NCBI GenBank assembly: GCA_028280565.1
Contig: JANQLQ010000197.1
Span: forward strand, 1-38,329
Direction: 5' to 3'
DNA: 38,329 bases
Source: Fulvivirga sp.
Lineage (GTDB): Bacteria; Bacteroidota; Bacteroidia; Cytophagales; Cyclobacteriaceae
Shown in pieces: positions 3,718 to 38,329 of the stretch (position 1 is its first letter; each line of letters starts with the position of its first letter). Position numbers and translations under genes: made by a program. The notes below the pieces were generated by a model. The model was not told the origin of the DNA. It searched no databases and saw nothing but the letters and a program-made list of their open reading frames with translations.

Positions 3718-3839
3718 CTCTTTTAAATTAGATGGTTGTACCAATACTTTTTCATGTTCACTTTTACGGTTCCATTTACTGTCAAAAAATAAACCGTAGC
3801 CTTTATTGACCAGGTTGGGTATTCCCTTTATTGGCATCC

Positions 3840-12626: not shown

Positions 12627-13652
12627 TTAATAAATTAACACTTCGTTTTCGTTTATCTCATAATTAATGTCTGCCTCGAATTTTATTCCTTCCAACACGT
12701 TCTTAAGCGATTCATTCTCAAAGACCCCGGAATATGTTTTATCCTTAAATTCCTCATTATCAACACGTATTGGCTTGCCATACCAGCGTTCCAATGTCTT
12801 TATCAATCCAGGTACAGGGGTTTTATCAAAGTAAAGGATACCTTCTGTCCAGCTAAATTCAGCGCCAACACTATTTGATTTCAATAAATTTAAGTTCGAC
12901 CGATCATACTTAGCCATCTCGTTGGCATTCAAGGTCATGTTTTCTTTGAAATTTCCCTGGCGACCCTCGCCCTGTACCAACACTTTACCGGTGGCTACGG
13001 CCACAGCCGCCGTCTTATCTCCTGGATATGCCCTGATATTAAATGAAGTCCCCAATACCGTGGTAAGCATCCCCCGTGTGTGTATCAAAAACCTCCTGGA
13101 AGTGTCCCTTTTCACTTCAAAAAAAGCCTCACCTTCCAGGTAAACCTCCCTGGAAGAAGCTGAAAACTCCTTTGGGAATCTCATCTTGCTCCCGGAATTC
13201 AGTTTAATGACCGAACCATCACTTAGCATAGTAGTTAACTTTTGACCGTAAGGGGCCGTCTTTTCAACCCATTCAACTTGCCCGAACGGAACTTCTTCAA
13301 TTTGACTTACTTTATTCCAATAAAATAAGCCTAAAGGAATTAGGATGAGGGCAATCGCCGCTGCAATTCGTTGCCAAGAATACCACAGCGCCTGGCGATC
13401 TTCTTTGATCCGGCTAAAGGTTTTTACCAACTCTTTTTCACGTTCTTCCTTATCCAGTGATCGCTGGTCATTTGCGTAGATGTTTCTAAGGAGGTATATG
13501 GCTTCCTCTATTTCACTTATTTTGTCAGGATGGGACCGAATCCAATCATTCCAGAAGTGGATATCTGCAACATTTTCCTTGTAAACAAACGATCGAAAAG
13601 ATGGATCATCCAGGAAATCATCTGCACTGTAATTGCTGTACTCTTTTTTCAT
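12627..13652 (-). CDS. FecR-family anti-sigma factor (transmembrane)
   Basis: Holds the partner ECF sigma factor and receives a signal from the STN domain of SusC. It has a cytoplasmic N-terminal region of about 90 residues, one membrane helix (about 95-112; IAAAIALILIPLGLF), a FecR domain in the periplasm (about 125-225; APYGQKLTTMLSDGSVIKLNSGSKM, FPKEFSASSREVYLEGEAFFEV, VLGTSFNIRAY) and a C-terminal DUF4974 domain (about 265-341; TPVPGLIKTLERWYGKPI, YSGVFENESLKNVLEGI). The 341-residue length and architecture are standard for Bacteroidota PUL regulators. It lies between the sigma factor (14401-14958) and susC. The 0.75-kb gap separating it from the sigma gene is unusually wide, so it probably has its own promoter. 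Confidence 0.94.
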   Translation of the reverse strand: MKKEYSNYSADDFLDDPSFRSFVYKENVADIHFWNDWIRSHPDKISEIEEAIYLLRNIYANDQRSLDKEEREKELVKTFSRIKEDRQALWYSWQRIAAAIALILIPLGLFYWNKVSQIEEVPFGQVEWVEKTAPYGQKLTTMLSDGSVIKLNSGSKMRFPKEFSASSREVYLEGEAFFEVKRDTSRRFLIHTRGMLTTVLGTSFNIRAYPGDKTAAVAVATGKVLVQGEGRQGNFKENMTLNANEMAKYDRSNLNLLKSNSVGAEFSWTEGILYFDKTPVPGLIKTLERWYGKPIRVDNEEFKDKTYSGVFENESLKNVLEGIKFEADINYEINENEVLIY

Positions 13653-14400: not shown

Positions 14401-14958
14401 TCACCCAATAAGGCAAATATGTATGAGTCCCAGGAGGACAAAGTTGATCACAAATGTATCTCTAAGCACCTTTAACGCTTGATGCGATAAATTGTAAACC
14501 GTACTGGTTTTCAAGGAAGTGATAGAGGCTATCTCTTCATAATCGTAGCCTTCCAGGAACCGAAGCCTGATGATCTGCTGTTTCCTTTTTGATAATAAAC
14601 GGACTGCCTTGAGTAACCTATTTCTATCCTGTGAGTCTTCCTGACGTTCCAAAAACCTGTTTTCCGGGTTGAAGACCAATTCATTTTGCAGCTCAAAAAG
14701 TTGGTCTACCTTCCTCTTTTTCTGGTCTTTCCTGACGGCAGCGTAGATCACCCTGCTCAGATGCTTCAGTAAATAAGATCTGATGTTAACAATCTCGTTT
14801 ATTCGATTCCTTTTCACCCAAAAGTATGTGAATACTTCCTGGATACAATCTTTGGTCATATCAGGATCCATCGATAATCTTAATCCTAACCGGTAAAGAT
14901 CATCATAGTAAGTATGATATATTGAAACAAACTTATCATAATATGGATCACTTATCAT
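14401..14958 (-). CDS. ECF-type RNA polymerase sigma factor (SusCD-associated)
   Basis: Directs RNA polymerase to the promoters of its PUL when released by FecR. Region 2 is seen around residues 10-80 (FVSIYHTYYDDLYRLGLRLS, DCIQEVFTYFWVKR, IRSYLLKHLSRV). Region 4 is around 110-165 (LLSKRKQQIIRLRFLEGYDYEEIA, then LKTSTVYNLSHQALKVLR). At 185 residues the size is normal. The last 17 residues (FVINFVLLGLIHICLIG) are strongly hydrophobic, a feature seen in some Bacteroidota ECF factors that might place the protein near the membrane or its anti-sigma. It is the first gene of the regulatory block. The partner is almost certainly the FecR at 12627-13652. Confidence 0.95.
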   Translation of the reverse strand: MISDPYYDKFVSIYHTYYDDLYRLGLRLSMDPDMTKDCIQEVFTYFWVKRNRINEIVNIRSYLLKHLSRVIYAAVRKDQKKRKVDQLFELQNELVFNPENRFLERQEDSQDRNRLLKAVRLLSKRKQQIIRLRFLEGYDYEEIASITSLKTSTVYNLSHQALKVLRDTFVINFVLLGLIHICLIG

Positions 14959-15724: not shown

Positions 15725-17845
15725 TTATCGCCTAAGGAAATTATTCTTGACGAGGAAAAAATCCAGGCCTAACGACTGCTTTCGAGCGCTTGTTTCACCT
15801 TCCTTCGATCTGGCCACAATTTTTATGGCGAAAGCATTATTTACCGGCTCACATTCTCCCAGGTTCACAGGGGGTGACGTAATACCAATAGTCCCAGAAA
15901 AGAAGTTGTAAGTGGTTTTGAGTTCTCCATTGACGTAGATATCAAACATACCTCCGTTCCGGTCTATGGTAGCCCCTAAGAACAGCTTCGATTTTTCAAA
16001 CTGCTCAGTCAAAGTATATTCAACATAATTTCCGGCTTGATCGAAAGTAATGTCGGTATAAGCGCCACTGCTGATCTCTCCCCAGCTCCACTGGTTCCCC
16101 CTGATCTTATCCCACTCTTCTTTAGATACATTTTTAAATGATGTACCTGCACTTTTATTTGAAGCCCTGAGTATTTCTGCTTCCAATGCTCCCTCTACCA
16201 CATAGAGTTCTTTGGTTGCCCCTGTTATGAGCTTCTCCAAATCGGCAATTGTGGGAAGCTTCGCCGCAGCCTTTCCGGGTAATGGCTGACGGTTATGTGT
16301 GACACCGGGCTCTCCATACCAGAAAGTGGTCTGGGCATATTGAAGAAAGTGAGACTTACTTCTTTTACCGCATGATGACTCTATATCGAATTTTACCTGG
16401 CGCTGAAACGGAATGGCATCCAGTACACGGGTACGTGTACATACATTGTATCCTTTAGAGTTAGGGTCTGCTACAATGATATTCCCCAGGAAGGGTTTGG
16501 AAAATTCATCCGCTGAGGTAGGGACCACTCCTCCTGCCCAGCCATAATAATCTTCCGTGCCTGTGCCAAAGTGGGAGGGAAAGTTTTTGCTGATGTCATC
16601 GTCTATGTAAATCTTCTCATCGCCTTCACCCCACCAGCCTTCTATAGGATTGAGTACAGCCCATTCATCACCTACGACAACACCTTTACCTTTGGCTTCT
16701 AAAAAATTCCAGTCATAGAGTGGGAAGGTAGTCGTGGGGTCGTCCATACGCCAGGTGGCATAGAAATGCATGGAGTTGTCCGCCCATCGGTATTCGCCTG
16801 AGGTGACGGTCATAGCTGCTTTTACTTCTGCGTTACCATAGTTTTCCAGGTACAGGTCAGCTTTTCCCTTAAACGGCATTACCCAACGACAGACCATAGT
16901 ACCGTCAGGCTTTACCGTGCGCTCCCACATCTGATAGGGATGGCTTTTACCTACATTATTAAAAAAGTCACCTACAGGTGCCCATACGGTTTGCACTCCA
17001 TCGAATTCAGCGCGAAGTACCACAGAGCGGAGCGCCTGGGCTAAATTGCCTGTTTCGCTAAGTTTGATAGCGATCTCTTTGATGGCTTTACTCTTTTTCT
17101 CAAAAGTAAAGGACAGGTTTTCTCCTTTTTTCAATAAACCACTCTTTTGGTGTTTTTCTCCCTGCGTAACGGGTGTGGCGGTAAGGACACTACCTACCTG
17201 TTTCCGAAGCTTCTTTGTCTGCTCAAACTCTTTCATTGTGAAAGTCCTGATATCAGTGCCTTCCGGGTATTTCCGGTAGTTGATAATGTTGTAAAAGGCC
17301 CTGTTATCCATCGTGATCTTACAGCTTTTGGCATAGGGTATGGGGAAATAAAGATTGCCCGCCCTGGCAGACTCATCTGCAAAAGGGGCTTTCACAAAGT
17401 CCTGGCCCTTAACCAGCTTAAAAAAATTGGTGGAGATCGTGGGAATACTTTCCCCGTCAAGGTAGATGTTGATATTGGCCCCGGTGGTGTTACCTAGCCC
17501 ATAATAGAAGCATACGGCCCATATCTTGGTGATTACGCCAGGACCTTCGTCCTCCATCAACACCCACTCTTTTTTGCCATTGTTTTCTTCCGTCCGGATA
17601 AAACCTATTCCATCACTATCGGCAAACCAGCCAGGTTTGTCGGGAGAAACGGACTCACGATTGTAGCTACTCGCTTGTAGAGAACGGTAGTTGGTTTCCG
17701 GAAAACGGGTCACCTGCTCCCGGTCTATCATCTCGTTAAGCAAGGTGGTAATGTTGATTTGTTCCTGCTTTGAAGAAGCGGGGGAGCAAGCCCCCAAAAG
17801 GGATGCCGCAAAAATTAAAAGAGCTCTAAATAAGTGAATACTCAT
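15725..17845 (-). CDS. GH172-family (DUF2961) lipoprotein with extra C-terminal domain
   Basis: Probable exo-acting furanosidase. Characterised GH172 enzymes act on alpha-D-fructofuranosides or D-arabinofuranosides; the substrate here is unknown. A lipobox (LLGAC, Cys20) indicates a lipoprotein. The DUF2961 region covers about 30-530: LQASSYNRES near 56, EGPGVITKIWA near 100, LRSVVLRAEFDGVQTVWAPV near 272, MHFYATW near 359, WWGEGDEKIYIDDD near 404 and FPSHFGTGTEDYYGWA near 422. Glu410 and Glu431, 21 residues apart, are the likely catalytic pair by analogy with the two catalytic glutamates reported in the founding GH172 enzyme. Residues about 545-706 form an additional beta-rich domain (AGNYVEYTLTEQFEKSKLFL, GGMFDIYVNGE) that could bind carbohydrate. 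At 706 residues it is much longer than short GH172 proteins. It is separated from the upstream GH172 gene by 492 nt, so it may have its own promoter. Confidence 0.88.
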   Translation of the reverse strand: MSIHLFRALLIFAASLLGACSPASSKQEQINITTLLNEMIDREQVTRFPETNYRSLQASSYNRESVSPDKPGWFADSDGIGFIRTEENNGKKEWVLMEDEGPGVITKIWAVCFYYGLGNTTGANINIYLDGESIPTISTNFFKLVKGQDFVKAPFADESARAGNLYFPIPYAKSCKITMDNRAFYNIINYRKYPEGTDIRTFTMKEFEQTKKLRKQVGSVLTATPVTQGEKHQKSGLLKKGENLSFTFEKKSKAIKEIAIKLSETGNLAQALRSVVLRAEFDGVQTVWAPVGDFFNNVGKSHPYQMWERTVKPDGTMVCRWVMPFKGKADLYLENYGNAEVKAAMTVTSGEYRWADNSMHFYATWRMDDPTTTFPLYDWNFLEAKGKGVVVGDEWAVLNPIEGWWGEGDEKIYIDDDISKNFPSHFGTGTEDYYGWAGGVVPTSADEFSKPFLGNIIVADPNSKGYNVCTRTRVLDAIPFQRQVKFDIESSCGKRSKSHFLQYAQTTFWYGEPGVTHNRQPLPGKAAAKLPTIADLEKLITGATKELYVVEGALEAEILRASNKSAGTSFKNVSKEEWDKIRGNQWSWGEISSGAYTDITFDQAGNYVEYTLTEQFEKSKLFLGATIDRNGGMFDIYVNGELKTTYNFFSGTIGITSPPVNLGECEPVNNAFAIKIVARSKEGETSARKQSLGLDFFLVKNNFLRR

Positions 17846-18337
17846 AATTTTACTTTTTTTAATTTTATATTCTTTTTTTGATGCATGTTTTTAAAAATTT
17901 CTCATTAAAAAAGGTCGTCTTACTAAATAGTATCCGTTCCTTTTTGTCAAAGTCATGATAAGTCTCAGATCGTACAATTTGCCTTTACATTCTTACTATT
18001 AAGCCTTTAGCGTTAAAGATTCCATTTTTTAGTGTTTGTACACTTTGTCAATATTCCAATTGAAAAAGGAGGCACAAGCTTCAATCACACCTTTTGACTT
18101 AGAAGATACTACAGCGGTAAAATGAAGATCATAATTGGCTTGTTTACCATTCTTTTCGTTACTCATAGCCTAGATTGATCGTGTTGTAATAGCAAAGTAT
18201 TGATTGTTACTTAATGTTTACTAGCTACGGTGTTTTACTACCTGGCAGGTACCCATGCAATCGTAATAAGCCATTCGCTCAAAAACGAAAACTTATGCTC
18301 TCATTCTAACTTTATGATTAAGGCAACTGACAACACT
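17846..18337. other. Intergenic region between two GH172 genes
   Basis: The widest gap in the hydrolase block. Upstream of the 17845 start the minus strand has CTTTGACAAAAAGG followed 18 nt after its TTTG by TATTTAG, a weak match to the Bacteroidota TTTG/TAnnTTTG promoter. Apart from a tiny uncertain frame at 18029-18166, no gene is visible. Confidence 0.35.
18029..18166 (-). CDS. Tiny hypothetical ORF, 45 aa, uncertain
   Basis: An ATG-initiated frame begins MSNEKNGKQANYDLHFTAVV and ends FFNWNIDKVYKH. Its amino-acid composition is protein-like, but I recognise no family, see no signal peptide, and find no ribosome binding site I would rely on. It could be a chance ORF or the end of a lost gene, like the other remnants here. 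Confidence 0.15.
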   Translation of the reverse strand: MSNEKNGKQANYDLHFTAVVSSKSKGVIEACASFFNWNIDKVYKH

Positions 18338-20158
18338 TTATTTTACATCTCCAGGTGTCAAAGCCACCGGATACTTGGCAGCTTCAGGCGCTGGTTCAAT
18401 ATTACTCTTTACCCCGGGACGTGCATACCAATAGACCGTAGGCGCATAATTCAAACGCGACTTTTCCCAGTGCATCAACTCCATATCAAAGCGTAACTTC
18501 TTGCAGAAAGGTATACCGTCCAAAATCCTGTAACGGCCATTGATCGTAAAACCTACACTTTCATTTCCCGAACCATCGGGTTGTATGACGAAAGGAGTTG
18601 AAAAGGATGCCCCTAAGCACCAGGCATATCCGTAGTAATCCTCTGAACCTGTTCCAAAATGTGAAGGAAAAGCGTCATCGTCAACAAAAATTTTCTCATC
18701 TCCTTCACCCCACCATTTAGGACTGATATCGAATAGGGTTAACACGTCCCCAACATAGACCCCTTCGCCTTGAAGCGTGACATAGTTGAGATCACGATTT
18801 GGTTTCGAGTTAATGTTTGTGTATTGGTGCCAAGCTGAGCCAAAATGCATACTGCGTACGTCCCATTCCCAATTAACCACAGACACCTCTCCCAGGTCAA
18901 CATTGACTTCCTGGGTGCCTAAATTATGTAGTTTTATTGTACTGGTCTCGGCAAACGGCATAATCCATTGACTCAGCATTACCCCGTTTTTATCAACAGC
19001 GCCATACCAGTGCTTGGACGGGCGTATTTGATACCCTGTTCCGAAAAAATCACCTACTGGAGCCCAAACCGTCCGCTCTCCATCAAAGGAAATCTCCAAA
19101 ACAGTAGAGCGCAATGCCTGGGGAAGGTTCTCAGCCTCAATCTTCAACGAAATTTGATCAATCGCGCCACCTTTGTTAGAAGACGCCTTTAGCTCCAGCA
19201 CCTTGGATTTTTCCGGAAGGATCTTTCCTTTAAGCGATTTTACCTTTGAACGAACACTCTTGGGTACAGTAGCCGATATTAATTTTTCCTGGGTCAATTC
19301 GATGAGTTTCTTCGCCGAGGTAAGGCTTTTGGGTGAGAGAGACTCGACCTGTACGGAACGATCATATAGTCGGTAGTTGATATTGTAAAAAACCGCATCG
19401 TTGGGCCAAGCCGGTTCCCCTTCAATTAACTTCTTGCCATCCGGTCTTTCATAGGTTATCTTAATGGATTCTGAAAAAGGAATGGGTAGATAAAGGTTAC
19501 GTCCGCGTTTTACTTTGACACTTTCCCTGGCCAGGGCCATAGAAAGCGGAACAGAGGCAAAAAAATCACCGCCAACCAGGTTTTCAAGAGTACCTGAGAA
19601 TACCGGGCTGCTGTCATCATCAATATAAAACCTCAATGTTCCACCGAGCAGATCAATATTACTGGTTACACTCCAAAACCTGACGATTGCCCCGGGCCCT
19701 TCGACATCCATCATCACATGCTCGTGCCGGCCATCCTCTTTTTCTTCCACGTTCACAAAATAGGAGCGGTCTCCGTTGGCGTACCAGCCCTCATTTCGGC
19801 TTACTGTGCGCCTGTCATAACTTGAGGCCTGTAAGTTTTTGTAGGATGGCATGGGCAACCTGGCAATGAACTCCCTAGAAACCATTTCTTCTAAAAGAGA
19901 TTGAAATGTCACTTTAGTCTTGCTCTTTTGGCCCATAGCGTAACCAACATCAACCGGGGCACCTTCCTTATAAAGATTATTTGATGTTTTGCTTATTTTA
20001 TGACCAGGAGTGCTAATTCCCAATTGACCTGCTTCCATGTTTTGGATAAGTTCATCCAAAGGCGAATCGTTTACCCCGAAGGAGGTAATAAGAAAAAACA
20101 ATACACCTATCAAGAGTAATCGACTATTCACTTTTTTCGCGATCATTCGTTCTATCAT
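18338..20158 (-). CDS. GH172-family (DUF2961) secreted protein
   Basis: A second long DUF2961 protein, 606 residues, with a signal peptide (LLLIGVLFFLITSFG) and no lipobox cysteine. After an unusual 50-residue linker (about 30-80) the family region runs to the end: LQASSYDRRTVSRNEGWYA near 109, EGPGAIVRFWSV near 153, LRSTVLEISFDGERTVWAPV near 349, MHFGSAW near 437, WWGEGDEKIFVDDD near 482 and FPSHFGTGSEDYYGYAWC near 497. Glu488 and Glu506, 18 apart, are the likely catalytic pair; the spacing is three shorter than in the neighbour at 15725. The start at 20158 follows the preceding stop by 3 nt, and an alternative ATG is four codons in. Probably acts on a furanose-containing glycan in the periplasm, as part of the long hydrolase operon. 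The exact sugar cannot be read. Confidence 0.88.
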   Translation of the reverse strand: MIERMIAKKVNSRLLLIGVLFFLITSFGVNDSPLDELIQNMEAGQLGISTPGHKISKTSNNLYKEGAPVDVGYAMGQKSKTKVTFQSLLEEMVSREFIARLPMPSYKNLQASSYDRRTVSRNEGWYANGDRSYFVNVEEKEDGRHEHVMMDVEGPGAIVRFWSVTSNIDLLGGTLRFYIDDDSSPVFSGTLENLVGGDFFASVPLSMALARESVKVKRGRNLYLPIPFSESIKITYERPDGKKLIEGEPAWPNDAVFYNINYRLYDRSVQVESLSPKSLTSAKKLIELTQEKLISATVPKSVRSKVKSLKGKILPEKSKVLELKASSNKGGAIDQISLKIEAENLPQALRSTVLEISFDGERTVWAPVGDFFGTGYQIRPSKHWYGAVDKNGVMLSQWIMPFAETSTIKLHNLGTQEVNVDLGEVSVVNWEWDVRSMHFGSAWHQYTNINSKPNRDLNYVTLQGEGVYVGDVLTLFDISPKWWGEGDEKIFVDDDAFPSHFGTGSEDYYGYAWCLGASFSTPFVIQPDGSGNESVGFTINGRYRILDGIPFCKKLRFDMELMHWEKSRLNYAPTVYWYARPGVKSNIEPAPEAAKYPVALTPGDVK

Positions 20159-20161
20159 TCT

Positions 20162-20530
20162 TTAGTTTTGAAAAAAATCATTTGTCTCATAACAAAACTT
20201 TTCCGAACTGCCGCACATTTCATACCTACGCAAATCATAAGGATCAATTAAGTATAGTTCTATTTTTTGACGATTTTGTAGTTCCTCTTTACGGGTTTGT
20301 TGTCTTATATATTTTTCTTGAAGGGGATCAACGCTACTTAATATTTTCTGCTCCTTGTCGTCGAAGTTAGCGGCTATCTTTTTGTGCTGCTGAATTTGGC
20401 GGAACAGTTTATTGTTTTCAGGATCCAGTGCAACTAAGGGCACTCCTCTAGCTTTGAGAGCTTTCACCCTCTTGGAAATATGGCTTTTCCGTTTTAAAAA
20501 CTGTCTTTCTATACCTGGCTTCTTTCCCAT
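20162..20530 (-). CDS. Hypothetical protein, 122 aa, charged and helical
   Basis: I do not recognise this protein. It begins MGKKPGIERQFLKRKSHISK, has no signal peptide or membrane helix, and is rich in Lys, Arg, Gln and Glu, with a probable long helix or coiled coil over about 45-95 (KLFRQIQQHKKIAANFDDKEQ, KYIRQQTRKEELQNRQK). The C-terminal part has two cysteines (MCGSSEKFC). It fits exactly into the operon: 16 nt after the stop of the esterase fusion and 3 nt before the start of the next GH172. The tight fit argues for translation. The lack of an export signal is out of character among secreted enzymes, so it could be a cytoplasmic accessory protein or the remnant of a larger gene. No frame-shifted homology to the flanking families was visible when I read the other frames at its 3' end. 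Confidence 0.5.
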   Translation of the reverse strand: MGKKPGIERQFLKRKSHISKRVKALKARGVPLVALDPENNKLFRQIQQHKKIAANFDDKEQKILSSVDPLQEKYIRQQTRKEELQNRQKIELYLIDPYDLRRYEMCGSSEKFCYETNDFFQN

Positions 20531-20546
20531 GTTTCCCGAAGTTCTT

Positions 20547-23500
20547 TTACTTGATCACTACCCATGTGTAGCTATTTGCTTTTACGGTGACTTCTATTTC
20601 TATGGTGTATTCTCTGTCCAGGGTATATTTTTTCGAGGGACCATCGGCGATGGATATGCTGGCTTCCTTCGCAAGACCCGTGTAGTACAGGGGTACTTTG
20701 ATCTTTTTAGTGATATGCCGGTCTGTCAGTGGATTATAGATCGTAAGAATCCCTTTTTCTTTACCCTCGGGGTTGACGTTAAGCCAATAATCCAGGTCCC
20801 TTCCGTCTGCCCTGCGCAAATGGATGATGTCTCCGTCTAATACGTCACGATGTTTTTTGTACCAGTTGACCACACGTGTCACCATAGCCTTGGTTTTATC
20901 AGTATCGTAAAGGCGAGGCCCCCGGTAGTGAGCTTGAACTCCCGCACCAAGGTTGCTGGCCATCATCATTTCGTAATGATCCAGGTGTTCGTTAAGCGGT
21001 TCTATCGTGGCCGCTGCTCCTCCCCCGTGGTATTCGGTGAGGGCTACAAACATCCAGCCCATCGCCGGTATTTTTTGCCATGCGCCATCGTAGATATTTT
21101 GACGGGCATGGATAAGCTGCTGATTACGTGGCAGGCTCCAGTTGACTTCTCTATAACCCATCCCACATTTATTACCCCCTGTCATGTAATAGTAGTCGGG
21201 AATGTTGAGGTATATGCCATTGGCCCTGCACCACTGGTAAAACCGGGAAATGGTTTCATACTGCTCCCACCGGGAATCCTCAAGTCCTTTGTGACCGGGG
21301 TGATCGTTGGAGGCACAAACATCACCGGGATAAGATCCGTCATGTTCAAGCAGCGTGAAACCGGTTTTTTCATAGAAGTTGTAAAGTTTTTTAAAATAGG
21401 TTTGGCCCCACTCACTTTCGATACAAGGAGAGTTTCCAAAAGTGGGGCGCTGGCCTGGAGGCATTACTACATCGTTTCCTCCACCTACCCTGCGGGAAGC
21501 AAGTAAGGAATACCCCCCTATTTCTATGCCTTTGCTTTTGGCATAATCAGCATATTGCTTCATTTTGGCCATATAATCTTCACTATTGTCTTCGATATTA
21601 AAGCCACTACCAAAGGTGAGTATCACCATTTCAAAGCCTACCTCGGCCGCCTGGTCAATGGCTGTTTTCACTCTTTCCCAATCGGCAAAGCGCGCATGCA
21701 TCATAAGCGGATTTTCGGTGGTCCAGGGTGCCAGGGTGCGATACATTCTACGGAGCGCCATACCCTGCCGTTCCCTGTCGTAGCTATCGTAAGGAAGTAC
21801 AAAGGTGCGGAAGGTCTTGAAAGTCTCACCAGTGGCGATGGTCTTGTCAGGACCTATTTCGGGACCTACATTGAGAAGACATGGTGTGATACGCAGGTAA
21901 TTGACCTGGGTATGGTACTCGGGGTCCGGCAGCCATCGTACCGCGTGATGGTTGGCGTCCTCTACGTTAAAGCTGGAAAAGGCGTAATCGGTTTCTACAT
22001 GAAGGTTTGGCTTGGGCACATTGTATTCGCGGGTCTCCACGGCTGATCCATACTCTACAGCGGCTATGATCTCACTGGTAAATTTCTCCAGGGTAATATC
22101 TTTGCCACTGTTGTTTTTGACAGTGAGCCATTTGGCTATGACAGGGATACCATCGTAAAGTTCATAATGAACGGAAAGGGTGATATCATTTTTGTTGAAT
22201 CCTGCTTTAGTATTGCTGTCCAGGTTACCATAGGTGGCGTAATCCGCTACTTGCATTCTCACCAGCTCCCCGGGTTGCCCGGCATCTTTGCTTTCTCCCT
22301 TGGCATTGGTTTTACCTATGCGCACTTTGGAAGGCATGGTACCAAAGGGTTTTAGCCCAGTAATGGTGCGCCAGTTACCTCCCTGTGGTTTAGCTTCACA
22401 AAGAACGGCTTCTTCGGTAATGCGGTAACGGAGTGTCCAAGGTTTACTCATGTCGAGCACCTGCCGCCCCCCTGCTGACCGGTTTTCTCTCTCGCCATCC
22501 CAAAGGCCAAACATAGGCACTCCGTCGTCATAGGCATTGCCCCCGGGACGAAGGTAGAATTTCACGGTCTTATCCGGCCACACAAGAGTGATCCCGGGCC
22601 CATGGTCTTTGCTTTTATCAGTTCCTGTAAAGAAAGTAGCTTCTATGATCTTTGCTTCGGGATCGAGGTCCCTCTCAACATATACCGCCGTGTTAGCAGG
22701 GGTATAAATCTCTCCTACTTTACCTTCATTCTCGAATGAGGAACGTTCATGCCCCTGTGAGAAAGTGGTTTCCCAGGTGTCATCAAGGGTGTTAAAACTA
22801 GTGCTGTAAAGGATTTCCCTGCCATATGTACTAGGTAACAATCCCTTTCCTGCAAAAAGTGCCTGGGGATCAGGCATAGCGTAATCCATACGAAGGTGCT
22901 TTCCTTTTGGAGGCCATACGGAGTTTTTGGCATATTCTCTTACTTGTTTCCATTCAAAAGGAGCTTGGGGTTCGCTGATCTCATGACCCATGTACTGCAT
23001 AGAAGCAGGATCAGCCTGCATGGCATCCAGCCATTCACGCTTCAGGAAGGCATAGTTGGGCTGACCTTTAAGTCCTCCTACCTCGTAGTTAATGCCATCT
23101 ATTTTTACGATTGCTTCGGGTTTAACGCCACGTAAAAGGGATTCACCTGTCACTAGGTTGTCGAATCTTACGGTAGCGGCATTAGGTGCTATTCTGAAAA
23201 CGCGCCTGACAAGTCCGTTGGCCAGGACGATCTCGTCACCTCGCTCTCCCTTGTAAACATTGGCCTTATAACCATTTGCATGTAAAAGCCAGTCTGTTTT
23301 TACCGGCTTTTTCGGTTCAGATTCCAATTCCATCGTATGAAAAGCTGCCGCATATCGTTTTCCAAAAGTAATGAGGGAGTTCCGATTGAAATGTACCTGG
23401 TGGCGCTCCCTGGCAACTAATCCTGATGACTCGACAAAGGCGACTTGACGAAGCTGGCCAGGTAAATCACGAAGAGTATTCCGAACCTGGCCGATCTGCT

Positions 23501-24143
23501 GAACTCGCTGGGGAGCATTGTGATCCGGCCCTGTTCCGTAAAATTCACCAAGATCTCCTACAACAACAGGTAGTCCAGGGTTTTTAACATCAGCACGTAA
23601 GTCTTCTATGAGTTGTTTAAGTTTACCCCCATAACTATCAGCGTGTTGTGGGTCAATGGTATCGGATTCACCCTGGTGCCAAAGCATACCTTTAATTATT
23701 CCATACCGGGATGCCCATTTCACTTTAGCTATGACATCTTTATATACCTCTCCACCTTTACCTAGCATGGCTATTTCAGCTCCGCCGAAGGCAACAGGTA
23801 TCAAGGCTACGGTAATCCCGGGATGGGCATCCCGGTAAGCTTTGGCAAAAGGCCCCGCCAATCCAAACTGGTCACTCTCTAGACGGTTATGGATGGGGTG
23901 GACAGCCGGAAGCCAAGTAAATTTTTTACCCTGCTTCGTCCATCCTCTAAGCATTTTTACACCTGGTATAGGAATTTTATCCCGAGGTAACAGTTCTCCA
24001 TATCCAGCCATATTGGATTGCCCCATGAGAATAAAAATATGAGTGTTTTCTTTGTCCTTTTTGGTTTGTGCTTGCAAAGTAGTGCAAACGGTAAAGGTCA
24101 GAAACAGGAGTGCTAGGACATAAATGGCATTTCTAATTTTCAT
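20547..24143 (-). CDS. Sialate O-acetylesterase (SASA) domain fused to a clan GH-D (GH36/27-like) glycosidase
   Basis: A 1198-residue secreted bifunctional protein (signal peptide about 1-26). Residues about 34-272 are a SASA/SGNH esterase with GQSNMAG (Ser43 likely nucleophile) and WHQGESD (155-161); such enzymes remove acetyl groups from glycans. From about 285 a GH36-type N-terminal beta-sandwich begins (LANGLVRRVFRIAPNAATV, LVTGESLLRGVKPEA). It appears to be interrupted at about 440-640 by a concanavalin/LamG-like insert (SFNTLDDTWETTF, VKFYLRPGG). The sandwich then resumes (LSVHYELYDGIPVIAKWLTV) and leads into a TIM barrel (about 805-1110) with FTLLEHDGSYPGD, where Asp935 is the likely nucleophile. 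The C-terminus is an all-beta domain. The acid/base residue is not assigned. The GH-D sugar is probably an alpha-galactose-like unit. The fusion suggests that deacetylation and glycosidic cleavage happen on the same residue or branch. Confidence 0.85.
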   Translation of the reverse strand: MKIRNAIYVLALLFLTFTVCTTLQAQTKKDKENTHIFILMGQSNMAGYGELLPRDKIPIPGVKMLRGWTKQGKKFTWLPAVHPIHNRLESDQFGLAGPFAKAYRDAHPGITVALIPVAFGGAEIAMLGKGGEVYKDVIAKVKWASRYGIIKGMLWHQGESDTIDPQHADSYGGKLKQLIEDLRADVKNPGLPVVVGDLGEFYGTGPDHNAPQRVQQIGQVRNTLRDLPGQLRQVAFVESSGLVARERHQVHFNRNSLITFGKRYAAAFHTMELESEPKKPVKTDWLLHANGYKANVYKGERGDEIVLANGLVRRVFRIAPNAATVRFDNLVTGESLLRGVKPEAIVKIDGINYEVGGLKGQPNYAFLKREWLDAMQADPASMQYMGHEISEPQAPFEWKQVREYAKNSVWPPKGKHLRMDYAMPDPQALFAGKGLLPSTYGREILYSTSFNTLDDTWETTFSQGHERSSFENEGKVGEIYTPANTAVYVERDLDPEAKIIEATFFTGTDKSKDHGPGITLVWPDKTVKFYLRPGGNAYDDGVPMFGLWDGERENRSAGGRQVLDMSKPWTLRYRITEEAVLCEAKPQGGNWRTITGLKPFGTMPSKVRIGKTNAKGESKDAGQPGELVRMQVADYATYGNLDSNTKAGFNKNDITLSVHYELYDGIPVIAKWLTVKNNSGKDITLEKFTSEIIAAVEYGSAVETREYNVPKPNLHVETDYAFSSFNVEDANHHAVRWLPDPEYHTQVNYLRITPCLLNVGPEIGPDKTIATGETFKTFRTFVLPYDSYDRERQGMALRRMYRTLAPWTTENPLMMHARFADWERVKTAIDQAAEVGFEMVILTFGSGFNIEDNSEDYMAKMKQYADYAKSKGIEIGGYSLLASRRVGGGNDVVMPPGQRPTFGNSPCIESEWGQTYFKKLYNFYEKTGFTLLEHDGSYPGDVCASNDHPGHKGLEDSRWEQYETISRFYQWCRANGIYLNIPDYYYMTGGNKCGMGYREVNWSLPRNQQLIHARQNIYDGAWQKIPAMGWMFVALTEYHGGGAAATIEPLNEHLDHYEMMMASNLGAGVQAHYRGPRLYDTDKTKAMVTRVVNWYKKHRDVLDGDIIHLRRADGRDLDYWLNVNPEGKEKGILTIYNPLTDRHITKKIKVPLYYTGLAKEASISIADGPSKKYTLDREYTIEIEVTVKANSYTWVVIK

Positions 24144-24215
24144 ACTTATCTATTGTACTTTTTGTTCAATGGGTTTAACATACATGATCGCATTTTTGTG
24201 AATTGGTTTAAGAGA

Positions 24216-25949
24216 CTAATAACCCGGCACATCCTCAATTTTAAGGGCTACCTTTTGTCGTACCGCTTCAGCATTCGGTTCTGTATTCCACTGAGCCCCG
24301 GCAAAGGCATAGAAAAAGGTGGCCGGACTATAATTCATCAAGGCCCTGTAGGGATGCCATATTTCCATGTCAAATTTAAAATCCGTCGTGAAAGGAATAG
24401 CATCCAATAGTCTGTAGCGATTGTTGCTGGTATTACCAGGTGTTTTGTTGCCTTCCCCTATAGGTTGTGATACGTTAGGCGCTGAAAACCATTGAGGACG
24501 ACACCATGCGTAGCAATAATAGTCTTCTGTTCCTGTACCAAAGTGTGAAGGAAAATCTTCTCCATCCACGTATATTTTTTCGTCACCTTCGCCCCACCAG
24601 TTGATACCTGTTTCATCCGGAAAAGTGTTGAAAAGAGTCAGGTTATCGCCTACGAATATCCCTTTACCTTTTATGGCAATATAGTTTTCATCTTTGCGCA
24701 ATTTGGTATCCATACCCCTTGTTTCTTTCCAGGTAGCATGGAAATACATGGACCGTGCATTCCAATCATAGGCTTGATGGCCAACGGTAAGCTCTTCTAC
24801 AACGACCTCCTGTTTGCCATGGTTGACCAGGCTTAACCGGGCTTTTTTACCGAAGGGCATCACCCACCTGGAAGTCATTATACCTTCAGAAGTAGTATTG
24901 ATGTAAAAAGTCCTATGATGAAGCTGCCTGTAACCTACGCCATAAAACTGGCCTACTGGGCACCAAACGGTCTGTTCATTGTCAAATTCAATTTTCAATA
25001 CGGTAGACCTCAGGGCCTGCTCCTGATCGGCTGCCTTTAGCTTTGTCTGCAGGGAGGTAATTGCCCTTTGTCCTTCCAGGTCAAGGGTGAGGCTTTTCCC
25101 CGGCTTTAATGTAATGTTGTTCTTTGCGATCCGTTCACCTGCTATACCAGGGTCTTCCACCAGTTGCTTGCCTTCGGCTGCTATTTGTTCTTTGTACCTG
25201 GTAATGGTTTCCTTAGTGAAACTTTCAACCTGTGTGCCTTCCTGGTAAGTACGGTAATTGACCTGGTAGTAATGCCCTCGCCAACCTTCTATATGGTTAT
25301 ATTTATGCTCGCCGTCATAGGTGATCTTGCAGCTTTTGGCATAAGGGATAGGGAGGATCAGGTTGCGGCCTCTCCATACATCGTTCTCTGCCTTCTCAGG
25401 AGCAAAAAACGAAAAAGGCTTCCCCACTAACCCTGCCTTGCCTGCAAAATTCTGATTGTGCATTTCAATGACTGGTTCAGGATTGTCATCTATATAAACA
25501 CGATATATACCACCATATTCCGAAGGGATCCCTCCAAAAGTGGCCCAGAACCGGACAACGGCGCCAGGGCCTTTTGCTTCGAACATAACATCTTCTTTAC
25601 GACCGTCATTTTCTTCCAAACGTATGTACTGGCTGAAATCATGATTTTCAAACCACCCCTTTCCCCAATCGCGCCCCGTTACAGGTTGAAACCGGCCATC
25701 TTCTTCGCTTGTGCCTGGGGTTTTGGAATCTCGGGAATAGCTTGAGGCTTGTTTGCAGGTATAGGTGGCATCCGGCCATTGCGCAAGACTTGCCCGGTCG
25801 GTCATTTCCTCTAAAAGAGTTCCCATCGTGATGATCTTACTGCCCTGGCCATATATTGCCTGGCTCATACTGAACAAACAAAGTGTTATAAAAAAAAGGT
25901 GGTATCGCTTCCTGTAGAAAGGCTTTTTCTTTTCCTGTTTTGCGTTCAT
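24216..25949 (-). CDS. GH172-family (DUF2961) secreted protein
   Basis: The third long DUF2961 protein, 577 residues, with a basic start and signal peptide (YHLFFITLCLFSMSQAIYG). Family landmarks: CKQASSYSRDSK near 65, KGPGAVVRFWATFGG near 126, LRSTVLKIEFDNEQTVWCPV near 313, SMYFHATWKE near 400, WWGEGDEKIYVDGE near 451 and FPSHFGTGTEDYYCYAWC near 466. Glu457 and Glu475 are the likely catalytic pair, 18 apart as in the protein at 18338. Compared with that protein it has an extra 20-residue loop after the ASSYSR motif and lacks the N-terminal linker. It stops 72 nt before the esterase fusion gene and starts 52 nt after the beta-propeller gene, inside the operon. Expected to remove a terminal furanose sugar; which one is unknown. 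Confidence 0.88.
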   Translation of the reverse strand: MNAKQEKKKPFYRKRYHLFFITLCLFSMSQAIYGQGSKIITMGTLLEEMTDRASLAQWPDATYTCKQASSYSRDSKTPGTSEEDGRFQPVTGRDWGKGWFENHDFSQYIRLEENDGRKEDVMFEAKGPGAVVRFWATFGGIPSEYGGIYRVYIDDNPEPVIEMHNQNFAGKAGLVGKPFSFFAPEKAENDVWRGRNLILPIPYAKSCKITYDGEHKYNHIEGWRGHYYQVNYRTYQEGTQVESFTKETITRYKEQIAAEGKQLVEDPGIAGERIAKNNITLKPGKSLTLDLEGQRAITSLQTKLKAADQEQALRSTVLKIEFDNEQTVWCPVGQFYGVGYRQLHHRTFYINTTSEGIMTSRWVMPFGKKARLSLVNHGKQEVVVEELTVGHQAYDWNARSMYFHATWKETRGMDTKLRKDENYIAIKGKGIFVGDNLTLFNTFPDETGINWWGEGDEKIYVDGEDFPSHFGTGTEDYYCYAWCRPQWFSAPNVSQPIGEGNKTPGNTSNNRYRLLDAIPFTTDFKFDMEIWHPYRALMNYSPATFFYAFAGAQWNTEPNAEAVRQKVALKIEDVPGY

Positions 25950-26001: not shown

Positions 26002-27066
26002 TCATTTATTATTGTGTAATTCAAACGGGATCGAAACTGTATAGGCATCATCCCCATCCCTGGCTGCAAGGCTGAGCACCACAGGCTTTCCGTTCTCCGT
26101 ATAAATAAATGGTCTTTCCAGCCGTCCTGGTTTCCACACCGTACCGTCTTCCATCCTGATATTTTTTGTGGTAACGGTGTAGTCATGGGCCTTTTCCCAA
26201 TTAAGTCCGTCAGGAGAGGTAATGAGGCCTATGAAAGTATGGGCATGAAAGACACCATAGAACCGTTGCCGTAGTTCATCATACCAGACAGACATGTCCT
26301 CGGTATCCATGTAATCGATCACTGGCTTTTCATGCATCCTGAAAGGGCCGGTAGGAGAATCGGAAATGGCTATGGCCTGGTTGCGTACAAAATTTGTGTC
26401 GTTAGGCTTGTTGCCCTTTACTACCAAATAATATTTCCCATCCTTTCCCTGGTCTATTGCCGGGTTTACAGTTAGGGTAGTAATAGGGCCAGAGGGCTCT
26501 ACCGGCGGTTGGTCCATGCGCTTCCACGGACCATAGATAGAATGAGAAACTGCCACCCCGGTACGTTGATTAGGCCGAAGGGTCTTCCAGTTTGGATGGT
26601 CGTACCCAGTTTGCGCTGTTTCTACTAACTCAGCCTGTGAAAAATCCCTGTCCCCAAGGTTAGTGGAAATATAATAGAGGTAATATTTTCCATCAAAGTA
26701 TTTGATCTTTGGATTATGAGCTGTGATGGCATCCCAATGTCCCTTTCCCCTGCCTTGCAATTCTGTCTGTTTGTATTCCCAGGGCCCCGCTGGATGCTTT
26801 GAAATAGCATGGGCGATCTCGGAGTGGGTAAGCCAGCCATAAAAGTTGTACTCTTTTTTCCAGCGGGAATAGAAAAGATGGTAAAGGCCGTTCTCATCTT
26901 TACAAATAGAGGCTCCCCAGTTATAGTAGCCCGGGGTTTTCAAAATTTGCTTTTCGGAAATTTCGGGGATCTTATTACTAAGGGTAAGATCGTCCTTCCC
27001 GGATTGCGCAATGCAGGCTATTACAAACACTTGAAACAAGATGAGGGGCAATATTAAGTTCTTCAT
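26002..27066 (-). CDS. Secreted five-bladed beta-propeller glycosidase-like protein (GH43-like fold)
   Basis: A signal peptide (MKNLILPLILFQVFVIACIAQ) is followed by about 330 residues with the same blade pattern as the protein at 2614-3717: YYNWGASICKDENGLYHLFY, then WLTHSEIAHAISKHPAGPWEY, ITAHNPKIKYFDGKYYLYYI, IYGPWKRMDQPP, PTGPFRMHEKP and DGLNWEKAHDY. The second copy keeps the THSEIAHA and HNP motifs, which are therefore probably functional. The family number and substrate are unknown. I chose the ATG at 27066 over the TTG two codons upstream; it lies 2 nt after the stop of the GH-D gene, implying coupled translation. The leader contains IAC, but without a convincing lipobox. Confidence 0.82.
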   Translation of the reverse strand: MKNLILPLILFQVFVIACIAQSGKDDLTLSNKIPEISEKQILKTPGYYNWGASICKDENGLYHLFYSRWKKEYNFYGWLTHSEIAHAISKHPAGPWEYKQTELQGRGKGHWDAITAHNPKIKYFDGKYYLYYISTNLGDRDFSQAELVETAQTGYDHPNWKTLRPNQRTGVAVSHSIYGPWKRMDQPPVEPSGPITTLTVNPAIDQGKDGKYYLVVKGNKPNDTNFVRNQAIAISDSPTGPFRMHEKPVIDYMDTEDMSVWYDELRQRFYGVFHAHTFIGLITSPDGLNWEKAHDYTVTTKNIRMEDGTVWKPGRLERPFIYTENGKPVVLSLAARDGDDAYTVSIPFELHNNK

Positions 27067-27068
27067 GC

Positions 27069-29219
27069 TCAAATTGAATTGGTAATTTGAAAGTTCAATA
27101 CTTTTACTTCCTTGGGCTTTAGGGTAATACTGATCGTATCCCCGGCCGAAGCATTTTTACCATCATGTTCTTTTCCATTGTGAAGCGGTGAACTAATGGA
27201 ATAGGTTGCCTTCATGTTTTTCACTCCCAAGGCCCGGTTAAGCGAAATGCTGTATTTTCTTGTTTCTTCAGAAGGATTATGGAAGGAGGCATAGCCTTGT
27301 TCGTTATTCCAAGCAGTGTAGCCATAAACTTCAGACCTTGCAGGAGCCCCTCCATGCATTTTGACGTTTTGGAAGGTGGGAAATACATCGTAGACCCATT
27401 CCAGGCCTTCGGCCATTACATCCCAGTCTTGTTCCGAGAGGTTTTCAGTTTTGATGTAGAATTCGATAAAGCCGGTGCCCCTGGAAAGGTTCATAAAAAG
27501 GTACTCACTGAATTGTTCTTTTGACTCCCCGGTTTCTACCTTTTTGGGTTCGTGGTTAAAAATGGCGTGCATGGGGAATTTTGTATTCTCCTTTATCCAG
27601 ATATCGTGATAAATATCGTCACGATAGACCAACTCACCGGACCGGCCTTCACCTGTTGCCCCGTCCGCAGCATTAATGAGCCACACCACATCAATATATT
27701 GCAACCACCACGGGCTCAGGTAAGCCCCATTAGTAATGGCCATAAACACCCCGGGGTTAATAGACGAAACTTTGGAAAAGATATCCACCAGGCGCTCGGT
27801 TCCAGCCACTAGGTAATAGGTTTTAAGCTCATCATACCGGCTGTCGTTAAGCCTTGGATCGGTGCTGGTAAACCCGGCGGTATTCAATTGCGACATTTTG
27901 GGGGCTCCTCTGCCGTTGAGTTCAAAGGCCCTGGTATAAAGGTGTCCGAATATGCCATCGAATTTAAAGTAAGAGATCCCCAAACGGGCAAGTTCAAGGG
28001 TACGTTTTTCAAAAGCATCCATATATTTAGGGCCGGACATGGACATGGAGAAGTCAAGGCTCTCAAAACCTTGTTCTCCAAGTTTTTTTACCATGCGGTT
28101 GGCTCCGAAAAAGCATCCGGGACTGTACCAAAGCCCCAACGTACCCTCCTGGGCCCTCACCAGTTCACGGCTGGAGGCAAAGTCCTTATCAAAGCGATCC
28201 GTATTGACTTTCCAAAGCTGATCACTCCAATCCGCATCTTCGGAAAAGCTGTCCTGCCAGCCATCATCAATGACGTAAGCATTGATGGGTTTGGCGCCTC
28301 TTTCTGTCACTAGTTCCTGGTAGATCTTCTTCACGCTTTTTTGAAATTTCTCCCGATCCACTTGCTGGTAATAGTCGAACCAGGAGTTGTATTGTACCTG
28401 GAGCCTCAGGGGACGTATCTTGATGTCATTGATATACTCATAAAATGCATCATCAATGTATTGGTAGTCATCGGTTACCCCTACTACTGCTTTGTAAGTC
28501 CGGTAGGTATCTCCTGCTTTTATCTCCTTGCCCCAAAGATACCCGCAATTAAGTTCTGTATCTTCTACGTAGTTGGTAGAAGCGGGAAATTCAACTCCCC
28601 AAAAAGTAGCGCTGTTAGTGGTGTAAAGGGGTTGTCCCAATCCAAATTTGTAATCGGTCACATTGCCCGGTCTATTGGGTCTATAGCCGGTTGGTGTGGT
28701 AATGAAGTTCATGGATTGGGCAGTGATCTGCTTGAGTTGGTAAGGCTGAAAGGCATCTTCAAAGGAGTGATTCTCAACCGTGACCTGTTCCAGTGTAAGA
28801 CTTTTTGCAGGAGTGATCTCCAGGTATTTGCGCAGGTAGGGTTGATCTTCCTCCAGTTCATAATGTACCGTAATGAGAAGAGAGTAATCTACATTTTGCA
28901 CATCAACCGATAAACCGCTCAGACCGGCTTTGTTATATTCAGAGACAGAAGTTACCTCAAAGTCTTTGGAGGTGAGCCAATGATCAGTCCCAACTTCACT
29001 GGTCCCTTTGGAAATGCGGATCTTGAATTCGTCGCTGTACTGAATGGCGACTTCCCTTTCTGCCATTTTATTTGTAATGGCTGTAGTGCTCAATGTACCA
29101 TTCGTTACACTGAGGGTTCGGGTAATATACTGATTACTAAGGGTGTAATGGTCTTGCCCGGGCACACAGCTCATCACTGTCACCAGAAAGATCAGCAAGA
29201 AGTACAGTATGGACCTCAT
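27069..29219 (-). CDS. Clan GH-D glycosidase lipoprotein (GH36/GH27-like)
   Basis: A 716-residue retaining alpha-galactosidase-like enzyme, probably a lipoprotein (TVMSC, Cys18). The N-terminal beta-sandwich spans about 25-265 (YLRKYLEITPAKSLTLEQV). The TIM barrel follows: VQYNSWFDYY near 275, the clan motif YVIDDGW near 315-321, GLWYSPG near 362, and YFKFDG with likely nucleophile Asp421. WWLQYIDVVW and the NLSRGTGFIEFY strand complete the barrel. A C-terminal beta domain runs from about 630. The GH36-like motifs are clear but the substrate is not; alpha-galactose, alpha-N-acetylgalactosamine or beta-L-arabinopyranose would all fit the clan. Stop and next start are only 2 nt apart, linking it to the propeller protein. 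It starts 14 nt after the GH89 gene. Confidence 0.85.
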   Translation of the reverse strand: MRSILYFLLIFLVTVMSCVPGQDHYTLSNQYITRTLSVTNGTLSTTAITNKMAEREVAIQYSDEFKIRISKGTSEVGTDHWLTSKDFEVTSVSEYNKAGLSGLSVDVQNVDYSLLITVHYELEEDQPYLRKYLEITPAKSLTLEQVTVENHSFEDAFQPYQLKQITAQSMNFITTPTGYRPNRPGNVTDYKFGLGQPLYTTNSATFWGVEFPASTNYVEDTELNCGYLWGKEIKAGDTYRTYKAVVGVTDDYQYIDDAFYEYINDIKIRPLRLQVQYNSWFDYYQQVDREKFQKSVKKIYQELVTERGAKPINAYVIDDGWQDSFSEDADWSDQLWKVNTDRFDKDFASSRELVRAQEGTLGLWYSPGCFFGANRMVKKLGEQGFESLDFSMSMSGPKYMDAFEKRTLELARLGISYFKFDGIFGHLYTRAFELNGRGAPKMSQLNTAGFTSTDPRLNDSRYDELKTYYLVAGTERLVDIFSKVSSINPGVFMAITNGAYLSPWWLQYIDVVWLINAADGATGEGRSGELVYRDDIYHDIWIKENTKFPMHAIFNHEPKKVETGESKEQFSEYLFMNLSRGTGFIEFYIKTENLSEQDWDVMAEGLEWVYDVFPTFQNVKMHGGAPARSEVYGYTAWNNEQGYASFHNPSEETRKYSISLNRALGVKNMKATYSISSPLHNGKEHDGKNASAGDTISITLKPKEVKVLNFQITNSI

Positions 29220-34073: not shown

Positions 34074-34085
34074 CAATAATGGTTC

Positions 34086-35498: not shown

Positions 35499-35505
35499 AA
35501 TCTTT

Positions 35506-37828: not shown

Positions 37829-38329
37829 TTACTTTTCATCCTTCAACATTTCGCCCACCTTCAACAAAATGTCAACACTTTCTTTAGGGATCTCACCGTT
37901 TCCGTCCGGACCAACATTAAGCAGCAGGTTCCCTCCTTTGGCGTTTATGTCTTTTAGTTTATCGAAGATCGTTTGTGGTGATTTCCAGCTGTTATCACTT
38001 TTTTTGAAGCCCCAGGAATGATTCATGGTATAACAAGCCTCCCAGTAATGCCCTAGTGAGCCTCCCGGGTGCTGCTGCTCCGGTGTACCAAAGTCCTTTT
38101 TGAAAAGCCGTCTTTTGGCTACCCGGTTATTGATGATGATCCCCGGCTTTAACTCCCGGATGTATTGATATAACTCTGTGCCGGTGGCCATATCCCACCA
38201 ATGGACCCAATCTCCATCAAACCATAGTACATCCGTATCGTATTCTTCCACAAGCTCCCTGATCTGATCCTTCATGTAGGCCACATATCCTGCTTTTCTA
38301 CCGGTTTTCATACGTACTTCACCCCAGTG
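37829..38329 (-). CDS. Alpha-L-fucosidase, GH29 (C-terminal part, cut by window edge)
   Basis: The final 166 residues of a third GH29 enzyme; its 5' end lies beyond base 38329, since the frame stays open to the edge (HWGEVRMKTGRK). Visible landmarks: YVAYMKDQIRELVEEYDTDV, the nucleophile strand LWFDGDW, IINNRVAKRR, and the GH29 closing motif GGNLLLNVGPDGNGEIP. It ends 14 residues after that motif and so has no long C-terminal sandwich, unlike the other two GH29 proteins. Its stop is 130 nt upstream of the GH31 gene, so it may be in the same operon or a separate one. Confidence 0.93.
   Translation of the reverse strand, partial: HWGEVRMKTGRKAGYVAYMKDQIRELVEEYDTDVLWFDGDWVHWWDMATGTELYQYIRELKPGIIINNRVAKRRLFKKDFGTPEQQHPGGSLGHYWEACYTMNHSWGFKKSDNSWKSPQTIFDKLKDINAKGGNLLLNVGPDGNGEIPKESVDILLKVGEMLKDEK

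What the first reader, a model, noticed from the sequence alone, without database searches (positions are those of the whole stretch)
15725..25949. Three divergent long GH172 (DUF2961) enzymes in one PUL, pointing to a furanose-rich glycan
The proteins at 15725-17845, 18338-20158 and 24216-25949 all keep WWGEGDEK and FPSHFGTG(T/S)EDYY with two invariant glutamates, so all are probably active. They differ in anchoring (one lipoprotein), in inserts and linkers, in catalytic-loop spacing (21 against 18 residues) and in an extra C-terminal domain. Characterised GH172 enzymes are D-fructofuranosidases or D-arabinofuranosidases. Having three beside GH89, GH29 and a SASA fusion is a combination I do not know from a described PUL.
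Basis: partly seen in the sequence, partly recalled or inferred. Interest (0 to 1): 0.75.

Follow-up and report, generated by a model that had tools for sequence, protein, structure and literature searches.

The report
Untested long GH172 enzyme clade
A bacterial gene cluster for taking up and digesting an unknown sugar polymer carries three enzymes of a little-studied sugar-cutting family, and they fall in a branch of that family with no tested member that I could find, so what they cut is still open.

Summary
Three PF11175/DUF2961 (GH172) proteins lie in one PUL on the minus strand, keep both catalytic glutamates and differ as described. All three are "1.5-domain" long forms: an added N-terminal jelly-roll-like domain (A), then a jelly roll without its N-terminal part (B), then the catalytic one (C). 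That layout was already noted for DgGH172b. They are not its close relatives: with 29 others they form a clade (94/82) holding none of the characterised enzymes I could place. I propose a dimeric six-jelly-roll ring with C/A' active sites (inferred; no model could be made). Three GH172 in one PUL is not unprecedented: D. gadei PUL42 has three. D-arabinan markers (GH183, GH116, fucose/D-arabinose isomerase) lie near 4 of 24 loci of this clade against 18 of 22 DgGH172b-type loci (a biased set), and are absent from the window. P0003 and P0001 belong to a cassette shared with two relatives, beside two weakly alpha-galactosidase-like proteins. P0002 is absent from that cassette there and about 80% identical to a paralogue elsewhere in this genome. 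Retaining furanosidases are likely; a furanose-rich glycan is not shown.

The parts
15725..17845 (-). P0001, long GH172, putative lipoprotein; profile hits at residues 9-186 (A) and 214-701 (B+C and tail); catalytic Glu 407 and 431 (24 apart); Gly at the position I count as Trp298 of alphaFFase1
18338..20158 (-). P0002, long GH172; first ~76 residues not shared with its paralogue; catalytic Glu 485 and 506; DNA about 80% identical to a gene on contig C70 of the same genome
24216..25949 (-). P0003, long GH172; profile hits at residues 9-237 (A) and 275-570 (B+C); catalytic Glu 454 and 475
20162..20530 (-). 122-aa ORF of unknown nature between P0004 and P0002, no Pfam match
20547..24143 (-). P0004: SASA esterase domain (34-268; PDB match to an acetylxylan esterase related enzyme) fused to family 'A1' (280-1198), weakly alpha-galactosidase-like; cassette member
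26002..27072 (-). weak GH43/GH117-like hydrolase
27069..29219 (-). family 'A2', weak Melibiase match below cut-off; cassette member
29234..31501 (-). GH89 alpha-N-acetylglucosaminidase
31566..34076 (-). GH2 beta-galactosidase (NCBIfam GalA, 931.7 against cut-off 900)
34086..35516 (-). GH29-family (Alpha_L_fucos) protein
35506..37698 (-). GH31 protein (best NCBIfam model alpha-xylosidase, far below cut-off)
37829..38329 (-). C-terminal part of a GH29 protein cut by the window end
14401..14958 (-). sigma-70 family factor (ECF type by size and setting)
12627..13652 (-). FecR-type anti-sigma factor
9071..12451 (-). SusC-like TonB-dependent transporter
7500..9074 (-). SusD-like protein
3840..7241 (-). 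FG-GAP/UnbV_ASPIC repeat protein
2614..3837 (-). weak GH43/GH117-like hydrolase
642..2276 (-). GH29 alpha-L-fucosidase family protein

Best explanation
The three proteins are exported, exo-acting, retaining glycosidases of the GH172 fold and mechanism, in a clade with no assayed member that I could find. Each chain has three jelly-roll-like units (A-B-C). C carries the two catalytic glutamates. A, not B, keeps the N-terminal segment (QxSSYxR...[ND]xD) of the kind that in short forms comes before the first jelly roll and in alphaFFase1 reaches into the neighbouring chain's active site. I infer a homodimer whose six jelly rolls form the usual ring, with C/A' interfaces as active sites: two per ring in place of three. 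By family stereochemistry the likely bond is alpha-D-arabinofuranosyl, alpha-D-fructofuranosyl or a similar furanosyl cap (inferred). P0003 and P0001 act with A1 and A2 on side chains of a fucose/GlcNAc/galactose-containing heteroglycan taken up by the SusCD pair (inferred from the gene set). P0002 is an added paralogue. Shown: homology, catalytic motifs, domain order, clade, shared cassette. Inferred: dimer, trans active site, sugar, glycan.
For: PF11175 over cut-off in all three. Second catalytic Glu kept in 32 of 32 rows of the clade; the first lies in the motif by which 31 of the 32 were picked, so it is no independent count. A short-form GH172 profile hits long proteins twice, about model 20-227 then 82-465, in 31 of 32 of this clade and 22 of 23 DgGH172b-type; the exceptions are a row with an upstream DUF2961 fragment in its ORF and a locus-edge truncation. 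[ND]xD before an EGPG-like motif in A in 31 of 32 and in B in 0 of 32 by a regular expression (weakness in the Against line). N31, D33, E85, K147, Y187 of alphaFFase1 found in the chain; their roles from PMC8605356 (passages). DgGH172b, same layout, is a dimer by SEC-LS (PMC10115798, passages). Clade support 94/82. Cassette in two relatives, partly in a third.
Against: Column check: at the profile columns where DgGH172b-type A domains have N-x-D (22 of 22) and short forms often do (74 of 130), this clade has it in 0 of 32; its own [ND]xD lies some residues later, and alphaFFase1's also falls elsewhere, so residue equivalence is not settled. The expression also needed a G-x-G motif that B lacks, so B's zero is partly built in; for row L181 it looked at the wrong stretch. 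B+C hits mostly start after those columns (both gapped in 25 of 33). PDB search found only 4 short-form chains; structure prediction was off. P0001's subclade has lost the Trp298 counterpart. The P0003 relative in G029 (L045) and the P0001 relative in G138 (L187) have neither A1 nor A2 within 9.5 kb. No enzyme for a released furanose is in the window.
Confidence: 0.5

Rival explanations
1. The PUL targets D-arabinan or another alpha-D-Araf-rich polymer, the three GH172 acting as exo-alpha-D-arabinofuranosidases as in D. gadei.
For: D. gadei PUL42 has three GH172 including a 1.5-domain one (PMC10115798). In L093 a protein of the window's clade sits in a cluster with GH116, a fucose/D-arabinose isomerase and an FGGY kinase. 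In L231 a P0001 orthologue sits with such an isomerase. The genome has one DUF4185 match over the cut-off (53.6 against 39.5 bits, partial), on another contig.
Against: No GH183, GH116 or isomerase in the window. GH183 near 0 of 24 loci of the clade; any of the three markers near 4 of 24, against 18 of 22 for DgGH172b-type (biased set, one locus in it twice). In L231 the isomerase lies beside GH29-type genes and may serve L-fucose. The genome's DgGH172b-type gene, next to an isomerase, is on contig C131.
Confidence: 0.15
2. The enzymes remove a different furanose (for example L-Fucf or L-Galf, which share ring stereochemistry with D-Araf, or alpha-D-Fruf) from a fucosylated heteroglycan.
For: GH29-type genes and a fucose isomerase in cassette L231; GH29 genes in the window; remodelled loop in the P0001 subclade. 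The stereochemical argument is from general knowledge.
Against: No direct evidence of such a sugar. Within 9.5 kb GH29 is near 2 and GH29-like near 2 of 24 loci; those of the window and L231 lie just beyond that limit.
Confidence: 0.2
3. The target is a sulfated algal or animal glycan, GH172 being tied to sulfatases.
For: 14 of 88 neighbour ORFs match the Pfam sulfatase family; three sulfatases lie beside the P0001 orthologue in G090, two confirmed by Pfam, the third by a profile made here.
Against: By locus, sulfatases lie near 6 of 24 loci against 7 of 20 background stretches: no enrichment; none in the window.
Confidence: 0.07
4. The long forms are catalytically idle or weak and kept for glycan binding.
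For: Extra domains and divergence; DgGH172b, same layout, was weak on several substrates (PMC10115798).
Against: Both Glu are retained over a deep clade (with the selection caveat for the first).
Confidence: 0.08

Closest known systems
DgGH172b of Dysgonomonas gadei PUL42 (GH172, '1.5 DUF2961')
   Same: A-B-C layout, SSYxR segment in A, both catalytic Glu, a C-terminal tail (by eye), two other GH172 in the same PUL
   Different: Separate clade (its group 100/100), FFEGDD in place of WWGEGDEK, N-x-D at a different profile column, D-arabinan marker genes around it. I used the gene at the matching place in Dysgonomonas sp. UBA7710 (whose DgGH172c piece is 98% identical), not the D. gadei sequence itself
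alphaFFase1 of Bifidobacterium dentium (PDB 7V1V)
   Same: Glu270/Glu291 pair, same Glu spacing (21) as P0002 and P0003
   Different: Two jelly rolls, hexamer, likely intracellular (PMC8605356, passages); outside the clade
ExoMA1 (PDB 8IC8) and DgGH172a, exo-alpha-D-arabinofuranosidases
   Same: Family and catalytic motif
   Different: Short form, GEGE motif, together 100/99 in another clade
DgGH172c (8AH3) and BACUNI_00161 (4KQ7)
   Same: Family and catalytic motif
   Different: Short form, WYGEGD, in a separate group 100/100

Membership tests
GH172 / PF11175 | Pfam DUF2961 above curated cut-off | tested here: met
   203.6-215.7 bits against 27
GH172 / PF11175 | Two catalytic Glu in WWGEG and GTG[TS]ED | tested here: met
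   all three
GH172 / PF11175 | Ca-site NxD delivered to the neighbouring chain's active site | tested here: inconclusive
   DSD, NGD, NHD in A by pattern but not at the profile columns used by DgGH172b-type (0 of 32)
GH172 / PF11175 | Retaining furanosidase activity | not testable with these tools
   no assay; catalytic residues only
DgGH172b-type long GH172 | 1.5 DUF2961 layout | tested here: met
   two profile hits per chain
DgGH172b-type long GH172 | Same clade as DgGH172b | tested here: not met
   separate clades; one clade of all long forms not rejected, p-AU 0.116
D-arabinan PUL (D. gadei PUL42 type) | GH183 (DUF4185) endo-D-arabinanase | tested here: not met
   none in the window
D-arabinan PUL (D. 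gadei PUL42 type) | GH116 and fucose/D-arabinose isomerase | tested here: not met
   none in the window; the contig end is not passed
PUL | SusC/SusD pair with adjacent CAZymes and regulator | tested here: met
   SusC, SusD, sigma factor, FecR

The most novel reading that the evidence does not exclude
These proteins define a separate GH172 subfamily of three-jelly-roll, dimeric-ring furanosidases whose physiological sugar is neither alpha-D-Araf nor alpha-D-Fruf, working with two undescribed alpha-galactosidase-like families (A1, A2) on an undescribed furanose-capped heteroglycan.
Probability: 0.2. Interest if true: 0.65.

Novelty: new variant of a known kind. Interest (0 to 1): 0.42.

Why it matters
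GH172 shares ancestry with the double-jelly-roll capsid proteins of viruses (PMC8812541, abstract and passages), and the solved GH172 rings are built from two-jelly-roll chains. A clade that would build its ring from three-jelly-roll chains is a natural test of how such rings evolve. No assayed member of the clade was found in the papers searched, and the cassette P0003-A1-P0001-A2 names concrete targets for a new furanosidase specificity.

Tried and rejected
Sulfated-glycan reading: suggested by neighbour counts (14 of 88 ORFs) but not by the background control (6 of 24 against 7 of 20 loci). D-arabinan reading: tested by marker genes and disfavoured. A1 and A2 against PDB and Pfam gave only weak hints (2xn0 alpha-galactosidase E 0.0012; GH36N E 0.0039; Melibiase E 8.8e-5 below cut-off). 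Neighbours of A1 (85 ORFs) gave no clear substrate. Coral-mucus and marine D-arabinose literature (listings and abstract starts only) gave nothing usable. A class-wide draw for a close DgGH172c relative found none at E <= 1e-60 (0 of 395).

Counts and rows dropped: neighbour scan A4 used 88 of 100 ORFs, the 12 over 1000 aa left out, and covered 19 of 24 clade loci (not the window, L040, L043, L231, L093). Scan A5 used 85 of 86, one A2 homologue left out, and 4 over 1000 aa had been left out before. In the FastTree run 5 incomplete rows were dropped and short forms were sampled (130 of 202); the IQ-TREE run used 79 of these. The jelly-roll tree used 68 sampled segments. The 24 and 22 loci are not independent: several come from one genome, L093 is in both sets, and in the 22 one Bacteroides locus is held twice (L063, L174), so distinct loci are 17 of 21. 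Of the 22, 13 were fetched because they lie near a DgGH172c-like gene, and 8 of the other 9 come from genomes chosen for such a gene, so the figure is biased upward. Marker profiles were built from one to four sequences each. The 20 background stretches come from 8 relatives and were chosen by round coordinates.
Full report
What was checked. The three ORFs exist at the stated coordinates on the minus strand and match PF11175/DUF2961 with 203.6-215.7 bits against a cut-off of 27; no NCBIfam model matched at 0.001. The genome (9.05 Mb, 337 contigs) has ten DUF2961 genes over the cut-off on five contigs (my tally by frame). One genome of the window's family group (G084, L034) encodes a GH172 protein identical from residue 21 on to that of Fulvivirgaceae bacterium JP3-4 (L127), a family NCBI places in Cytophagales. 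The species is not known.

The cluster. In the direction of transcription: GH29 (cut by the window end), GH31, GH29-family, GH2 GalA, GH89, A2, a weak GH43/117-like gene, P0003, P0004 (SASA fused to A1), a 122-aa ORF, P0002, P0001, sigma factor, FecR, SusC, SusD, an FG-GAP/UnbV protein, a second GH43/117-like gene and a second GH29. No GH183, GH116 or isomerase was found in it.

Domain order. A profile built here from short GH172 proteins hits each long protein twice: first with about model 20-227, then with about 82-465. This is the '1.5 DUF2961' layout noted for DgGH172b, a dimer by SEC-LS (PMC10115798, passages). In alphaFFase1 the active site lies between protomers: Glu270 and Glu291 from one chain, Tyr187' and the Ca-site residues Asn31' and Asp33' from the neighbour, with Glu85' and Lys147' near the +1 site (PMC8605356, passages; residues located in the chain). 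By a regular expression, domain A of the clade has [ND]xD (DSD, NGD, NHD in P0001-P0003) in 31 of 32 rows and B in 0 of 32. A stricter column check weakens this: DgGH172b-type A domains have N-x-D at fixed profile columns in 22 of 22 and short forms in 74 of 130, but this clade in 0 of 32, its [ND]xD lying later; the expression also needed a motif B lacks, and it read the wrong stretch for L181. What stands is that A keeps the N-terminal SSYxR segment (invariant in the six rows) and that B+C hits mostly begin after it. The dimeric ring with C/A' active sites is my inference; no model could be made.

Tree. On 79 rows of the catalytic region the clade (32 rows) has support 94/82 and the DgGH172b group 100/100. 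ExoMA1 with DgGH172a, alphaFFase1, and DgGH172c with 4KQ7 lie outside the clade. P0001, P0002 and P0003 are in three separate subclades. One clade of all long forms is not rejected (p-AU 0.116). In a quick tree of 68 jelly-roll segments the A domains of both long groups stand together (SH-aLRT 99), apart from B domains and short-form jelly roll 1, one A segment of the clade falling with the DgGH172b-type ones. That suggests a shared origin of A, with short segments (mean 156 residues) and a short search.

P0001 subclade. All five members held share a 3-residue insert in the catalytic loop and, counting from the second Glu, Gly where alphaFFase1 has Trp298.

Cassette. Two relatives (G016, G090) have P0003 (73%, 70%), A1 (50% and 57% for two copies, 72%), P0001 (65%, 62%) and A2 (53.5% both) together, without P0002. 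A third (G159) has P0001 (67%), A2, A1, GH29-type genes and a fucose/D-arabinose isomerase, without P0003. Against it: the P0003 relative in G029 and the P0001 relative in G138 have no A1 or A2 within 9.5 kb. A1 matches occur in 40 of 196 genomes of the family, three of them only weakly; strong A2 matches in 6 of 196, all six also with A1. Long matches to P0003 occur in 14 of 196 by my reading, a lower bound because at most 6 candidates a genome were scored. P0002 resembles a gene on contig C70 (80.6% of 530 residues; 80% DNA over 1677 bases that runs about 82 bases past the stop, the first ~76 residues not shared). So three is two cassette members plus one added paralogue.

Neighbourhood tests. 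Any of FucI, GH116 or DUF4185 lies within 9.5 kb of 4 of 24 loci of the clade (FucI 2, GH116 2, DUF4185 0) and of 18 of 22 DgGH172b-type loci (FucI 11, GH116 8, DUF4185 4); the second set is biased and holds one locus twice. The genome's single DUF4185 match is partial, over the cut-off and on another contig. Its DgGH172b-type gene on C131 lies beside a divergent isomerase. Sulfatases are not enriched: 6 of 24 against 7 of 20.

Literature. The library holds 13 papers with 'GH172' and 5 with 'DUF2961' (listings and abstract starts). Passages were read in PMC10115798, PMC8812541, PMC8605356, PMC10509167, PMC11748540 and PMC9905522. Nothing I saw describes this clade or combination. Further searches gave 1, 0 and 0 papers. 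This is limited to that library.

Verdict. New variant of a known kind.

Noticed in passing
window 20547-24143: The SASA domain is fused to A1 only here among the matches: the frame is 1200 aa, while the other listed matches lie in frames of at most 998 aa.
   Followed up: partly
window 20547-24143 and 27069-29219: A1 and A2 have no Pfam family above cut-off and are weakly alpha-galactosidase-like; both occur in six of 196 genomes searched, near each other. Candidates for new GH families.
   Followed up: partly
L093:7833-16553: Dysgonomonadaceae MAG with four DUF2961 genes of different groups in one cluster with GH116, a fucose/D-arabinose isomerase and an FGGY kinase.
   Followed up: partly
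L052 (G000:C131:48000-63666): DgGH172b-type long GH172 next to a divergent fucose-isomerase-like gene in the window's own genome: a possible separate D-arabinose locus.
   Followed up: partly
window 3840-7241: FG-GAP/UnbV_ASPIC protein just after SusD; homologues recur near GH172 genes (G016, G090, contig C264); role unknown.
   Followed up: no
window 20162-20530: 122-aa ORF without any Pfam match between P0004 and the added paralogue P0002; may be a trace of the insertion.
   Followed up: no
window 18338-20158: First ~76 residues of P0002 are not shared with its C70 paralogue, which by eye starts with a lipobox; the N-terminus may have been replaced.
   Followed up: partly
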